Shown piece by piece: positions 56,690 through 60,954 of a DNA stretch of 64,000 bases. Made by a program: the position numbers and the translations under genes. Position 1 is the first letter of the stretch, and every line of letters starts with the position of its first letter. The stretch lies in assembly GCF_947496985.1 (NCBI RefSeq), contig NZ_CANMEZ010000005.1, forward strand, positions 1-64,000. Direction: 5' to 3'. This DNA comes from an uncultured Kordia sp. GTDB lineage: Bacteria; Bacteroidota; Bacteroidia; Flavobacteriales; Flavobacteriaceae. Below the pieces are notes generated by a model, which saw only the letters and a list, made by a program, of their open reading frames with translations, did no database searches and was not told where the DNA came from.

Positions 56690-58195
56690 ATGAATGGACT
56701 ACTCTTTCAGTTGCCCAAAAAGGTAACCAAGTCAAATCTCAAACAAGCAATGCAACAAGCTATTGAAATTGAGATTGCTACAATTCCAGTATATTTATAT
56801 ACCTATTATTCAGTCAATAGAGTTCCCAACCAATCTGATATAGAAGCAAAAATTCTTTCAGATATGCAAGCAACTCAAAATGGAAAGAAAAATAAAAAAA
56901 CAGCTGCTGAATTACAAGAAGCTGCTGCGCAACTAGCTTTGGACATTATGGTTTTTGCCAACAAAGCTGGCGGATTGATTATGAGTGTTGCTGTAGAAGA
57001 AATGTTGCACATGTCATTATCATCTAATATAAAAAATGCATTAAAACCACCTTATGGAGGTGTTCCTGATTTAGTTGGGAAAACTCCAAAAGAATGGCCA
57101 GCATACTTACCTGGTCATGTCCCTGCTTTTCCAATAAATAGAGGAAAACTTAATAAAGAACAACTACATGCATTTTTGCTAATTGAAAGTCCATTACCGT
57201 TTAATAATGGTAAAAATGAAAAAGGAAAAGCTATTGAATATACCACAATAGGTGAATACTATGATCAAATCATAGCCTGCATGGATAAAGAATTAAGTGA
57301 TTCTGATTTCAACGGAGATGCACCACAATTATTACCAGGAAAAGGATACTACGCACAAAATAATATTGATACAATTTACTATGATGAAAATCATAAACCG
57401 CAATTTCCAAATGATGAAGATAGCGGAGGATTGGTTCATGTAAAAGGAAAATCTTCAGCGATTCATGCAATGCACGAAATCATAGAGCAAGGTGAAGGTT
57501 CACATTTTACAATAGAAATAGATGGTAAAAAAGAGAAAATAGTAGGAGATCATTTAACTCCTGAAGGAACAGTTGTATGTCCATTATTTCCGTTAGGTTC
57601 AGGAATGACAAATCCGTTAGATTATGATGATAAAGGGAAACAACATGAGTTATCACATTTCGATAAATTCTTAGAAGTATATTGTACAATTGAAAGAAAA
57701 AATAATGAACTCAATGCTTTTTTAGGAACAAAGGATTTTGATTTCACTAAGTACTTCGTAAGAGACCTTCCAACAAACCCAAGTACATCAGATTACCCAT
57801 CAGCTATTCAAGATGTATCTAATCTTACAAATGCAATTTATACATACATATTTGTAATGGCAGAAGCATGTTACAAAACTGCTGGACATAAGCAATACGA
57901 AATATTTATGTTTGGAATTCATAAATCTATGATTTGGTTACTAGATAATTTATGTGGAACTATGTCTAAATTACATTATACAGATAGTAGTGGTGAACAA
58001 CATAGCGTCGCAGCAACCCTTGAAGATTATGACTTTGCTCCTTCATCAAGTCCAAAATCTCAAATAATAAACTTAGCAGAAACTGCAATGGCTTCAAGTC
58101 CTATTGTATCTGAAACAATACTAAGTAGAATTAAAGATTTACCAGATGTGCCACTAGAAGCATACTTGGTAGAAAACAACAAAGGGATTTTATAA
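56690..58195 (+). CDS. Ferritin-like (VioB-type) domain protein
   Basis: A 501-residue soluble protein. The N-terminal part has the ferritin-like fold of the VioB-associated family (PF12902 type): AIEIEIATIPVYLYTYYSVN (Glu26, Glu28) and SVAVEEMLHMSLSSN (Glu103-Glu104, His107), a pair expected to bind iron. The centre is a loop-rich region with LPGKGYYA. Later helices contain IFVMAEACYK and FMFGIHKSMIWLLDNL, possibly a second half. Relatives include iminophenyl-pyruvate dimer synthases, but the rest of a violacein pathway is absent. The next gene begins 17 bp later, so it may supply an oxidative step to the cysteine-rich protein. Function inferred. Confidence 0.82.
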   Translation: MNGLLFQLPKKVTKSNLKQAMQQAIEIEIATIPVYLYTYYSVNRVPNQSDIEAKILSDMQATQNGKKNKKTAAELQEAAAQLALDIMVFANKAGGLIMSVAVEEMLHMSLSSNIKNALKPPYGGVPDLVGKTPKEWPAYLPGHVPAFPINRGKLNKEQLHAFLLIESPLPFNNGKNEKGKAIEYTTIGEYYDQIIACMDKELSDSDFNGDAPQLLPGKGYYAQNNIDTIYYDENHKPQFPNDEDSGGLVHVKGKSSAIHAMHEIIEQGEGSHFTIEIDGKKEKIVGDHLTPEGTVVCPLFPLGSGMTNPLDYDDKGKQHELSHFDKFLEVYCTIERKNNELNAFLGTKDFDFTKYFVRDLPTNPSTSDYPSAIQDVSNLTNAIYTYIFVMAEACYKTAGHKQYEIFMFGIHKSMIWLLDNLCGTMSKLHYTDSSGEQHSVAATLEDYDFAPSSSPKSQIINLAETAMASSPIVSETILSRIKDLPDVPLEAYLVENNKGIL

Positions 58196-58212
58196 TTAAA
58201 AGCAGTAAAGAC

Positions 58213-58968
58213 ATGAAAGATTTAAAATATAGCGCATTAAATGGATGTGGCGCAAACAGTTGTAGCAAATCAAGTACAAATGGGCCTAACAGTTGTAGCA
58301 GTAGTAGTAGTTCAAACGGTTGCGGAAGTAGTGGAGGATCTAATGGATGTGGAAGCGGAACAAGTACACCATCAAAACAAAAAGATATCGCAGTGCCATT
58401 GGAGTTACACGCATGTATGGGACTAAACGCTTGTAAAGGTCATGATCGATTTGGAACAAACGATTGTGCAGGCTCAGGACATTGTGCAACGCAAGTACAT
58501 AGTTGTCATACTTTAAATAATTGTCGCGGTCAAGGAGGTTGCGGATTATATGGAGATACAGAAGAACAGTGTAGACCAGGAGCAAATGATTGCGCGTGGC
58601 AAGGAAGTTGTGGAACGCCAATTCCTGCTGAACGCTTCATTACACAAGGACCAAACAAAGGAAGAAGTGTATGGCAATTGGCTCGTAAACTGTTTGAAGA
58701 TCGTATGGATAAATCACGTAGAACGGTAAAAGATGCGCCTTTTCAATATGGTCCACCAATAAAATGGTTACGTACTCAAGGAAGAGGAGAATCTTGTGGA
58801 AGTAGTGGTGATAAATATTGTTCTTTTGGATTAAATAATCCAGAGAAAAGTGCAAATGAATTCTGTATAGAAAGTAGTCACGAAATCAAAAATACACTTG
58901 AAAATTGTGATTGTAAAGAAGACAAAAAGAAGAAAAAATCTTCAAAAAAGAAATCTTCAAAAAAATAA
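58213..58968 (+). CDS. Cysteine-rich protein, candidate MNIO substrate
   Basis: A 251-residue protein with no signal peptide and 20 Cys. Residues 1-50 are Ser/Gly/Cys-rich low complexity with recurrent NGC and NSC. Residues about 66-140 hold four C-x4-C pairs, most as N-x-C-x-G-x-G-x-C (NDCAGSGHC, NNCRGQGGC, NDCAWQGSC). A region of about 140-195 (RSVWQLARKLFEDRM) is helical, and residues 240-251 are a Lys/Ser tail. CX4C-repeat segments of this type accompany DUF692 enzymes in other bacteria. It lies between the ferritin-like and DUF692 genes. Probable substrate of modification or a metal-binding protein; unproven. Confidence 0.82.
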   Translation: MKDLKYSALNGCGANSCSKSSTNGPNSCSSSSSSNGCGSSGGSNGCGSGTSTPSKQKDIAVPLELHACMGLNACKGHDRFGTNDCAGSGHCATQVHSCHTLNNCRGQGGCGLYGDTEEQCRPGANDCAWQGSCGTPIPAERFITQGPNKGRSVWQLARKLFEDRMDKSRRTVKDAPFQYGPPIKWLRTQGRGESCGSSGDKYCSFGLNNPEKSANEFCIESSHEIKNTLENCDCKEDKKKKKSSKKKSSKK

Positions 58969-58983
58969 TAACTAAACCGTTAG

Positions 58984-59084
58984 TTCGAGTGAAATATTGG
59001 AAAGATTTAGTATCGAGAAGAGCTTAGAAACAATAAAGTTCCGAAGTGCTTCTCGATACAATTTTCTATCAAAAATCACTCGAA
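58984..59084. repeat. Long nested palindrome in the DUF692 operon
   Basis: Two nested inverted repeats: outer TTCGAGTGA/TCACTCGAA (58984-58992 and 59076-59084) and inner GTATCGAGAAG/CTTCTCGATAC (59010-59020 and 59049-59059). The structure could form a hairpin of about 100 nt in the transcript between the Cys-rich gene and DUF692. Similar elements occur at 50766. It may be a dispersed repeat or an attenuator/mRNA stability element. Confidence 0.7.
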
Positions 59085-59191
59085 GTGATGTTTTTTGTGA
59101 AAAGATAAAATAAGGATGTGTGATTCTGAATCAAGCTCGGAATGACGTTAATACTGAAAGCTAAAAGCAAATAGCCAAAAGCTAAAAATCA

Positions 59192-60124
59192 ATGAAACAA
59201 ACAGTACAACAATTGCCCGATTTAGGTTTGGGCTTAGGTTTGCGTGGAGAACATTTCAATCATATTTTAGAACATACGCCTAAAGTAGATTGGTTCGAAA
59301 TTATTTCGGAAAATTTTATGGATTCTGGCGGTAGACCAAGGTATGTATTAGATCAAATTGCTGAAAAGTATCCAATCGTAATGCATGGAGTTTCAATGTC
59401 GATTGGAAGTACAGATGACTTAAATTTTGAATATCTCAAACGATTAAAAAATCTGGCAAAAGCAATTAATCCAAAATGGATTAGCGATCATTTGTGTTGG
59501 ACAGGTGTGCTAAGTCTAAATTCACATGATTTATTGCCTGTTGTACTCAATGAAGAAAGCTTGAAGCTTATTACAACGAAAATAAAACAAGTGCAAGACT
59601 ATTTAGAACGACCATTAATTCTAGAAAATCCAAGTACATACTTAACGTTTCAACAATCTACGATTCCAGAATGGCAATTTTTAAAATATATGGTTGAAGA
59701 AACGAATTGCGGTTTATTACTCGATGTAAATAATGTATATGTGTCTTCGTTTAATAATGAATTTGATCCAATTGAATACATAGAAGGTTTGCCACATAAA
59801 AGTATTGTACAAATGCACTTGGCAGGTCATCAACACAATGGTGATCATATTATAGATACTCATGACAGTCCCGTAGTTGATCCTGTTTGGGAATTATTCA
59901 GTTTGGCTTGGGAACGTACTGGTGGAACGTCAACTTTATTAGAATGGGATGGAAATATTCCTGATTTTAATGTCTGTCATGCAGAATTATTGAAAGCAAA
60001 AAATTATATGAATGGTTTTGAAAAACAATTTGTAACACCAAGGGTAACAGTGTCTGAAACAGAAATAGTGTCAAATCCAGTTGATTTTATGGTGACGAAT
60101 GTGGCAAAAGATTTTGTAGAATAA
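59192..60124 (+). CDS. DUF692 (MNIO-family) iron enzyme
   Basis: A 310-residue TIM-barrel protein of the DUF692/multinuclear non-heme iron oxidase family. Family landmarks: GLGLRGEHF, WFEIISENF, MHGVSMSIGS (His65), ISDHLCW (Asp99, His100), LENPSTY (Glu145, Asn146), LLLDVNNVYV (Asp178), VQMHLAGHQH (His209, 213), DTHDSPV (His224) and LLEWDGNIP (Glu251, Asp253). MNIO enzymes oxidise Cys residues of partner peptides, giving for example oxazolone-thioamide or other modifications. The next gene (DUF2063) overlaps by one base. The Cys-rich protein upstream is the likely substrate. Confidence 0.93.
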   Translation: MKQTVQQLPDLGLGLGLRGEHFNHILEHTPKVDWFEIISENFMDSGGRPRYVLDQIAEKYPIVMHGVSMSIGSTDDLNFEYLKRLKNLAKAINPKWISDHLCWTGVLSLNSHDLLPVVLNEESLKLITTKIKQVQDYLERPLILENPSTYLTFQQSTIPEWQFLKYMVEETNCGLLLDVNNVYVSSFNNEFDPIEYIEGLPHKSIVQMHLAGHQHNGDHIIDTHDSPVVDPVWELFSLAWERTGGTSTLLEWDGNIPDFNVCHAELLKAKNYMNGFEKQFVTPRVTVSETEIVSNPVDFMVTNVAKDFVE

Positions 60125-60954
60125 TGGACATCAAAAGAGACGCTTCGCGTAAAGCGACACAAAAAAGTTTTGCGCAAATTCAACAATGGATGCAATCACA
60201 ATTGATAAATCCACAGTTTCGAAATGATTATGAAGATTTTGTAAAATCGACTTCAAAACTTTCTGCAAAACAACACTTGCAAATTTACCAACGAAGTTAT
60301 ATTGCTCGTCTGCGTGATTGTATGATTGCGCAATTTCCAGCATTAAGCCATGCATTGGGAAAAGAATTGTTTCTAGAATTTGCCGATTTGTACTTACATC
60401 AATATCCTTCAAAAAGTTATACTTTGGGCGATTTAGGTCAGCATTTTGGAACGTTCTTAGAAGAAACGAGACCAGATAAAGATGCTGAAGTAAAAGAATC
60501 ATGGCCTGATTTTATGATTGAATTGGCAAACTTTGAATTTTTAGTAAATATTATTTTTGATGAAAAGGCCGATGAGAACCATCAAAAAACAACTTTAGAA
60601 ACAAAAGAAGAAGACTTGAAATTAGTGCCAGTATTTCATTTGTACAAACATCAATTTCCAGTGAGTTTATATTACAAAGAAGTAGTAAATGATCGAAATC
60701 CAACACTGCCATTTGAAGCTGAAAGTTACTGCGTGTTACTACGTCGTAAGTATCGATTGGGATTATTTGAGTTGAATAGAGTTCAGTACTATTTCTTAAC
60801 AAAGCTAAAAGAAACGCAATCTATTTATAAAACCAAACAGTTCTTTATTACACAACATAACTTTGATGCAAATGAACTTGAATCGCATTGGAAACAATGG
60901 AAAGTAAAGTGGTTGGAAGAAGGTTTTTTTACTTCGACTTCGCGCTTAATGTGA
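60124..60954 (+). CDS. DUF2063 family partner of DUF692
   Basis: A 276-residue protein of the DUF2063 (HvfC/BufC) type. The N-terminal domain has LSAKQHLQIYQRSYIARLRDCM, IAQFPALSHALG and FLEFADLYLHQYPSKSYTLGDLGQHF; the C-terminal part is mixed alpha/beta. Such proteins accompany DUF692 enzymes and are thought to recruit the precursor. Its ATG overlaps the DUF692 stop (TAATG), so translation is coupled. Confidence 0.9.
   Translation: MDIKRDASRKATQKSFAQIQQWMQSQLINPQFRNDYEDFVKSTSKLSAKQHLQIYQRSYIARLRDCMIAQFPALSHALGKELFLEFADLYLHQYPSKSYTLGDLGQHFGTFLEETRPDKDAEVKESWPDFMIELANFEFLVNIIFDEKADENHQKTTLETKEEDLKLVPVFHLYKHQFPVSLYYKEVVNDRNPTLPFEAESYCVLLRRKYRLGLFELNRVQYYFLTKLKETQSIYKTKQFFITQHNFDANELESHWKQWKVKWLEEGFFTSTSRLM

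What the first reader, a model, noticed from the sequence alone, without database searches (positions are those of the whole stretch)
56690..60954. Ferritin-like protein, 20-cysteine protein, DUF692 and DUF2063: candidate peptide oxidation system
Seen: four same-strand genes; the Cys-rich protein has four C-x4-C pairs, three as N-x-C-x-G-x-G-x-C; DUF692 and DUF2063 overlap by one base. Known: DUF692 (MNIO) enzymes with DUF2063 partners modify Cys in small precursors such as bufferins. Differences here: the candidate substrate is 251 residues, lacks a signal peptide and the DUF2282 pattern, and a VioB-type ferritin-like protein is in the unit. This may be a new precursor class or metal-handling system.
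Basis: partly seen in the sequence, partly recalled or inferred. Interest (0 to 1): 0.85.

Follow-up and report, generated by a model that had tools for sequence, protein, structure and literature searches.

The report
Bufferin-like cysteine protein with ferritin-like partner
A marine bacterium carries a four-gene unit, also found in distantly related bacteria, in which a cysteine-rich protein is probably chemically rebuilt by an iron enzyme and works together with a ferritin-like iron protein; it is a new variant of the copper-binding 'bufferin' systems.

Summary
The four genes are real and form a conserved unit: ferritin-like protein (FLP, PF12902), Cys-rich protein (CYS), MNIO/DUF692 enzyme, DUF2063 partner. 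All four are recognised in 55 of 56 loci that were found through CYS alone, in four phyla. In 345 genomes of the window's phylum, full-length CYS and this FLP subfamily occur in the same 7. What my literature searches did not find described is the FLP link. Four genomes carry FLP and CYS in one reading frame before MNIO and DUF2063. FLP keeps a diiron-type E/ExxH pattern. Best reading: MNIO/DUF2063 oxidise cysteines of a cytosolic Buf2-type domain that functions as one unit with a diiron ferritin-like protein. Chemistry and function are inferred. It may be the published, unstudied 'adjamnio-I', but the partner type reported for that family does not fit. New variant of a known kind.

The parts
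56690..58195 (+). FLP: ferritin-like protein, 501 aa, PF12902; pattern E28, E103/E104-xx-H107, E269, E320-xx-H323 of a diiron carboxylate site, plus a C-terminal helical domain
   Evidence: PF12902 in 54 of 54; model pLDDT 87.4; 3hl1 Z 24.4; positions invariant in 54 of 54; E320 in 53 of 54
58213..58968 (+). CYS: 251-aa, 20-Cys candidate substrate without signal peptide
58408..58542 (+). Buf2/BufA2-like module inside CYS (residues 66-110)
58570..58611 (+). third Cys repeat of CYS (residues 120-133, CRPGANDCAWQGSC; Cys 127 and 133 invariant, Cys 120 in 13 of 56)
58669..58713 (+). conserved helix of CYS (residues 153-167, VWQLARKLFEDRMDK), candidate recognition or docking element (inferred)
59192..60124 (+). 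MNIO (DUF692, BufB-like) iron-dependent oxidase, 310 aa
60124..60954 (+). DUF2063 partner protein (PME-type 1), 276 aa, overlapping MNIO by 1 base
58978..59151 (.). dispersed genomic repeat in the 223-bp gap between CYS and MNIO; not part of the conserved unit

Best explanation
The unit makes a cytosolic metalloprotein. The DUF2063 protein presents CYS to the MNIO, which oxidises some of the conserved cysteines of its Buf2-type C-x5-C repeats, most likely to 5-thiooxazoles as in bufferins. The matured CYS domain does not leave the cell as a metallophore but stays with the diiron ferritin-like protein FLP as one functional unit, in some species as one polypeptide, giving a metal-binding or redox-active FLP-CYS protein. 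Shown here: the gene unit, the homology of the Cys core to Buf2, the conserved iron-ligand pattern in FLP, the tight FLP-CYS linkage and the fusions at sequence level. Inferred: the modification, its chemistry, the cytosolic location, the metals, the reaction.
For: All four genes recognised in 55 of 56 CYS loci of Bacteroidota, Pseudomonadota, Acidobacteriota and Actinomycetota, found through CYS alone (at the stricter E<=1e-5 it is 54 of 56, L056's FLP being weak there but a PF12902 protein). Same 7 of 345 genomes hold full-length CYS and FLP at E<1e-100, MNIO adjacent in all 7. Buf2 homology; MNIO in one clade with those of three Bacteroidota Buf2/CKG-type units (59 rows, support 99/95). Four FLP-CYS fusion frames: L046 Pleionea (675 codons) and a diverged type in L153, L165, L166 (658-712 codons), each followed by MNIO and DUF2063. 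Other PF12902 proteins also keep redox company: GMC oxidoreductases beside 4 of the 7 paralogues whose neighbouring ORF was scanned, and one paralogue fused to Fer4_19 and CDGSH domains. No signal peptide by hydropathy. CYS core dN/dS 0.012-0.016, against 0.049-0.079 for whole FLP and MNIO.
Against: No modification, metal or activity is shown. The AF2 model of CYS is poor in the Cys region (mean pLDDT 57), which fits a flexible peptide to be modified as well as a domain that folds only with metal. In seven Actinomycetota units Cys85 is replaced and FLP comes last, so the order is not fixed. The fused form is rare: no further case in 195 and 11 genomes around two of the seeds. The fusions are read from contig frames only. 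12 of 14 CYS genomes examined hold one or two further MNIOs, so sharing of substrates or partners is not excluded. FLP may simply store or deliver iron for the MNIO.
Confidence: 0.55

Rival explanations
1. CYS is a cytosolic copper buffer or store, a large signal-less bufferin: MNIO-made thiooxazoles chelate Cu, and FLP is only an accessory that handles iron or peroxide around the MNIO.
For: Buf2 homology. Caulobacter genes of two DUF692 operons are upregulated by copper (PMC8224329, Table 2 lines seen). The N-terminal Cys-Gly-Ser repeats vary in number, as in a capacity-type metal binder.
Against: FLP is recognised almost as often as the MNIO (55 and 56 of 56) and is fused to CYS in four genomes. 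Beside the unit no other gene cluster recurs in more than 16 of 56 loci among the 25 clusters printed, shadows set aside. The core is very constrained.
Confidence: 0.25
2. FLP is a second tailoring enzyme: a diiron oxygenase or oxidase that acts on the CYS chain before or after the MNIO.
For: Conserved diiron-type pattern; PF12902 is shared with VioB, which acts in an oxidative coupling (its reaction is recalled; only a weak domain match here); ferritin-like genes lie near lodA/lodB, another protein-modification system, in five fungal cases (PMC4417212 passages).
Against: Fusion of an enzyme to its own single substrate is unusual (general knowledge); other PF12902 proteins pair with oxidoreductases.
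Confidence: 0.3
3. CYS is not modified; it is an iron-sulphur, copper or zinc protein and the MNIO acts on something else.
For: Low AF2 confidence is also seen with metal-dependent folds (general knowledge); no modification data exist.
Against: 56 of 56 loci have an MNIO match beside CYS and the core is homologous to a family of known MNIO substrates.
Confidence: 0.1

Closest known systems
Buf2 / BufA2 bufferins ('Cys-Lys' captophorins)
   Same: Shared core C-x-G-x-N-x-C-x-G ... C ... C-x3-N-x-C-x-G-x-G ... C, invariant in the 7 rows aligned; precursor, MNIO, DUF2063 gene order; MNIO in one clade with those of three Bacteroidota Buf2/CKG-type units
   Different: No signal peptide; 155-277 aa; a roughly 10-residue insertion, mostly with an extra Cys; a third Cys repeat and a conserved helix; BufA2 model 16.9 bits against cut-off 60 for the window protein; a ferritin-like partner. 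The residue after the presumed catalytic Asp (position mapped by motif, not by aligning FonB) is G, S, N or A in 42 and Asp in 8 of the 50 MNIOs where the pattern matched, of 56 examined, whereas Asp is reported for Cys-Lys MNIOs (PMC13097082, section 14)
adjamnio-I (Antoine et al. 2025, PMC12452194, Table 2)
   Same: No signal peptide, precedes an MNIO, 122-293 aa and 8-21 Cys there against 155-277 aa and 8-22 Cys here
   Different: Reported major partner is PME-type 2 (no DUF2063 signature); here DUF2063 matches in 54 of 54 partners. 'Ferritin' and 'Bacteroid' do not occur in the main text. Its alignment (Fig. S3) could not be read, so identity is unsettled
PF12902 ferritin-like protein CC_0557 (PDB 3hl1)
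   Same: Fold over model residues 10-445, Z 24.4, rmsd 2.8, 264 aligned
   Different: FLP is longer (501 aa, 3hl1 chain 289 residues) and is tied to an MNIO; I did not look for, or find, a function of CC_0557

Membership tests
MNIO (PF05114) / BufB | Pfam and NCBIfam curated cut-offs | tested here: met
   PF05114 355.6 bits against 25; NF050167 356 against 310
PME-type 1 (DUF2063) partner | PF09836 signature | tested here: met
   62.3 bits against 27.2; 54 of 54 members at E<=0.001; 10 of 10 rescored at 59.8-72.9 bits
HvfC equivalog (NF050145) | Curated cut-off 142 bits | tested here: not met
   55.2 bits
Buf2 / BufA2 bufferin | Conserved Cys motif (C-x5-C, NACKG type) | tested here: met
   53 of 56 members match the BufA2 model at E<=0.1
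Buf2 / BufA2 bufferin | NCBIfam BufA2 cut-off 60 bits | tested here: not met
   16.9 bits for the window protein
Buf2 / BufA2 bufferin | Sec signal peptide | tested here: not met
   Hydropathy of the first 40 residues; no SignalP available
Buf2 / BufA2 bufferin | Cys-derived thiooxazoles, Cu binding | not testable with these tools
   needs mass spectrometry and metal assays
Buf1 (DUF2282) | DUF2282 domain | tested here: not met
   no Pfam match at E<=0.1
adjamnio-I | No signal peptide, 122-293 aa, 8-21 Cys, before MNIO | tested here: met
   one of 56 members has 22 Cys, just outside the printed range
adjamnio-I | PME-type 2 partner | tested here: not met
   54 of 54 partners examined carry the DUF2063 signature
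adjamnio-I | Sequence alignment of Fig. S3 | not testable with these tools
VioB (TIGR04492) | Curated cut-off 1250 bits | tested here: not met
   14.6 bits
Ferritin-like PF12902 | Pfam cut-off 22.3 bits | tested here: met
   107.8 bits for the window protein; 54 of 54 members at E<=0.001
Diiron carboxylate protein | E, ExxH, E, ExxH pattern in sequence | tested here: met
   E28, E103, E104, H107, E269 and H323 in 54 of 54, E320 in 53 of 54; that this pattern marks diiron sites is recalled knowledge
Diiron carboxylate protein | Two iron ions bound | not testable with these tools
   needs metal analysis

The most novel reading that the evidence does not exclude
FLP and CYS are two halves of one new kind of metalloenzyme: a ferritin-like diiron protein coupled to a protein domain whose metal-binding ligands are made from cysteines by an MNIO. 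The MNIO and DUF2063 proteins would then be maturation factors of an enzyme, not makers of a metallophore peptide, which would move the MNIO family from RiPP chemistry into protein-derived cofactors.
Probability: 0.3. Interest if true: 0.85.

Novelty: new variant of a known kind. Interest (0 to 1): 0.64.

Why it matters
MNIO enzymes are a fast-growing family known so far mainly from peptide metallophores and other RiPPs. This unit links one to a dedicated ferritin-like diiron-type protein, has a substrate without export signal, and in four genomes welds the substrate domain to that protein. It also runs against the published correlation that signal-less precursors go with PME-type 2 partners (PMC12452194, section 19). 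If the FLP-CYS reading is right, an MNIO would be the maturase of a protein-borne metal site.

Tried and rejected
Rejected: VioB-type enzyme (14.6 bits against cut-off 1250); DUF2282/Buf1 membership; a wholly new precursor class (Buf2 homology); C-x4-C as the motif.

Led nowhere: a PDB sequence search with CYS found nothing at E<=1. The AF2 model of CYS was too poor for a fold search, so none was run. CYS was not found among 72,556 plasmid records at E<=1e-5. Clustering of flanking ORFs (90 aa or more, within 7 kb; 25 largest clusters printed) gave no fifth conserved gene: the larger clusters look like antisense or out-of-frame shadows of the unit, the next is a mixed cluster at scattered positions in 16 of 56 loci. 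The fused form was not found again in 195 genomes of one order or 11 of one family beyond the seeds. Literature: no paper that joins DUF692/MNIO with a ferritin-like protein came up in searches (listings of 20 of 24, 6 of 7, 15 of 57, 1 of 1 and 15 of 51 papers); one search was too broad to tell. The two papers that hold both words name them in unrelated places (PMC8224329; PMC7907618, where ferritin-like means Dps).

Limits of counts: the 56 loci come from six peptide patterns of the window protein, so distant relatives are under-sampled, as the diverged fusions show. L054 (Kitasatospora) is left out of A1-A3 because its genes are broken by internal gaps; A2 also leaves out L006 and L055 (incomplete), A3 also L009 and L050. 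Start codons of CYS homologues were chosen by script or by eye, so lengths are approximate; the L046 row of A1 is the C-terminal part of its fusion. The MNIO tree used 23 of 31 other MNIOs; eight distant ones (L092-L097, L099, L125) were dropped before building. In it the CYS-linked MNIOs are not one clade (two changes needed: the three Buf2/CKG-type Bacteroidota MNIOs fall among them), the link to the two other Buf2-type MNIOs is weak (83/27), and its own check warns of long branches. For the paralogue control ten of the weaker FLP-profile matches were fetched (not that of G358:C215); the neighbouring ORF was scanned in seven. The signal-peptide test is hydropathy only. dN/dS compares a chosen part of CYS with whole genes.
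Full report
What is there. The window is part of a 5.48-Mb genome (G000) whose nearest relatives in this system are two Kordia contigs (L002, L003; 91 and 90% identity of CYS). Four + strand genes lie at 56690-60954: FLP, CYS, MNIO, DUF2063, with gaps of 17 bp (FLP-CYS) and 223 bp (CYS-MNIO) and a one-base overlap (MNIO-DUF2063). The genome search finds one MNIO and one PF12902 protein, both in this unit. The 223-bp gap holds a palindromic repeat with matches at 14 other places of the genome.

Correcting the observation. The Cys motif is C-x5-C (five pairs); a single C-x4-C sits near the N-terminus; N-x-C-x-G-x-G-x-C occurs twice. 'VioB-type' rests on the shared PF12902 domain (14.6 bits against 1250 for VioB itself).

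Conservation of the unit. A scan of genome contigs with CYS alone gave 56 loci: by record title 37 Bacteroidota, 9 Pseudomonadota, 2 Acidobacteriota, 8 Actinomycetota. Searched with the four window proteins (phmmer), 56 of 56 have an MNIO match, 55 of 56 a DUF2063 match and 55 of 56 an FLP match, on the same strand, at E<=1e-3; at E<=1e-5 FLP is 54 of 56, L056 being the one lost, though its protein is a PF12902 match. The exception, L054, shows broken remnants. FLP is upstream in 48 of 55 and downstream of DUF2063 in 7 of 55, those 7 being Actinomycetota. No other gene family was seen to be conserved beside the unit. In a separate sample of 345 genomes of the window's phylum, CYS matches full-length in 7 (an eighth, weak match is a BufA2-type peptide), FLP below E 1e-100 in the same 7 and in no other (one more genome at 1.7e-16), MNIO in 23; coordinates are adjacent in all 7. 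In 246 genomes of the phylum of L049 (Actinomycetota) one further complete unit was found besides the seed; in 229 of the class of Pleionea only the seed had a full-length CYS. Of 14 CYS genomes examined, 12 hold one or two further MNIOs; the ORFs upstream of several of these are Buf1-, Buf2- or EGKCG-type precursors. Selection: dN/dS of the CYS core (64-170) is 0.016 and 0.012 against the two Kordia relatives; whole genes: CYS 0.052/0.041, FLP 0.074/0.079, MNIO 0.074/0.049, DUF2063 0.090/0.124 (simple NG86 with dS near or above 1, so rough).

What CYS is. Eight Cys (68, 74, 91, 98, 104, 110, 127, 133) are invariant in 56 of 56. NCBIfam's BufA2 model matches 53 of 56 members at E<=0.1 (best 5.9e-7), although the window protein itself is far below its cut-off. 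Conversely, the 13 weak matches of the CYS profile among those 229 genomes are 11 ORFs with a BufA2-type motif and a hydrophobic stretch near the start (12-residue maxima 1.83-2.68; L142 is a longer membrane protein) and two large fusion ORFs; 9 of the 13 loci show an MNIO within the stretch held. Aligned, CYS and five BufA2-type peptides share C-x-G-x-N-x-C-x-G ... C ... C-x3-N-x-C-x-G-x-G ... C, CYS having a roughly 10-residue insertion. CYS adds a third repeat and a helix S-V-W-x-L-A-R-x-x-F-E-x-R-M. The AF2 model is uncertain in the Cys region. A maximum-likelihood tree places the MNIOs of this family in one clade (59 rows, 99/95) with those of three Bacteroidota Buf2/CKG-type units and of the S. 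carnea fusion; the three Buf2/CKG-type ones fall among the CYS-linked ones; oxazolin-type (EGKCG) MNIOs lie apart; the position of two further Buf2-type MNIOs as neighbours is weakly supported. Pseudomonadota members lie among Bacteroidota at three places, which suggests horizontal transfer (long branches present).

What FLP is. PF12902 in 54 of 54; E28, E103, E104, H107, E269, H323 in 54 of 54 and E320 in 53 of 54, the two-E, two-ExxH pattern of diiron carboxylate proteins (the pattern is recalled knowledge). The model is confident (pLDDT 87.4, pTM 0.89); the best match is 3hl1, a Caulobacter ferritin-like protein (Z 24.4, rmsd 2.8, 264 aligned; Foldseek E 3.7e-06). Ten weaker PF12902-type paralogues, nine in CYS-bearing genomes, show no CYS, MNIO or DUF2063 match within the 9-11 kb read. 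Of seven neighbouring ORFs scanned, four are GMC oxidoreductases and three match no Pfam family; one paralogue is itself fused to Fer4_19 and CDGSH domains.

Fusions. In L046 (Pleionea) one 675-codon frame carries a complete FLP and then the CYS core. They retain an ACQGL...N-x-CA...H(S/T)C...G-x-CG...C...GC-x-PIS core and the E, ExxH, DQGEG, H pattern. The fused form looks rare.

Literature. Antoine et al. 2025 (PMC12452194; abstract, sections 13-15, 17-19, 21 and passages read; supplements not) list signal-less 'adjamnio-I' proteins (100 sequences, 122-293 aa, 8-21 Cys) before an MNIO. Length, Cys number and lack of signal peptide fit; the reported PME-type 2 partner does not, because the partners here carry the DUF2063 signature (54 of 54; 10 of 10 rescored over cut-off). 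The paper's main text has no 'ferritin'. Gadgil et al. 2026 (PMC13097082; sections 7, 13, 14 and passages) unify MNIO-PME1 products as 5-thiooxazole 'captophorins' in three precursor groups; NACKG, the invariant N72-K75 motif here plus a nearly invariant G76, is one of the 5-mers they tried in a FonA variant, and FonBC did not process it. Copper upregulates genes of two DUF692 operons of Caulobacter (PMC8224329, Table 2 lines).

Mechanism. Shown: unit, homology, ligand pattern, fusion frames. Inferred: MNIO/DUF2063 convert Cys of the C-x5-C repeats, probably to thiooxazoles; the product stays in the cytosol and works as one unit with FLP. Whether it stores copper, is further tailored by FLP, or forms a redox enzyme with it is open; the fusions, the tight pairing and the redox partners of other PF12902 proteins make me prefer the metalloprotein reading.

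Noticed in passing
window 58978-59151: A palindromic repeat between CYS and MNIO has matches at 14 other places of the genome.
   Followed up: partly
L054:8001-9150: Kitasatospora copy: CYS runs in frame into the middle of an MNIO, and the start of a DUF2063 frame runs into the end of an FLP; a decayed unit or an assembly artefact (read by eye).
   Followed up: no
L155:3066-5390 (- strand): PF12902 protein of the Andreprevotia genome fused to Fer4_19 and CDGSH domains.
   Followed up: partly
L142:967-1674 (- strand): Membrane-type protein with a BufA2-type motif towards its end, reminiscent of the MerC-Buf2 chimaeras described in PMC12452194; not scanned.
   Followed up: no
L031:10664-12094 (- strand): Nramp metal transporter downstream on the other strand; its cluster recurs in 9 of 56 loci, by title 7 Mucilaginibacter and 2 Bacteroidetes MAGs.
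   Followed up: no
L077, L078: MNIO units with small signal-bearing precursors of repeated DSCKGKDGCKGKD type; their MNIOs fall among those of this family.
   Followed up: no
L002:8001-8831, L004:7788-8561: The N-terminal Ser-Gly-Asn-Cys repeats (SNGCGSS) of CYS vary in number between Kordia and Aquimarina relatives.
   Followed up: no
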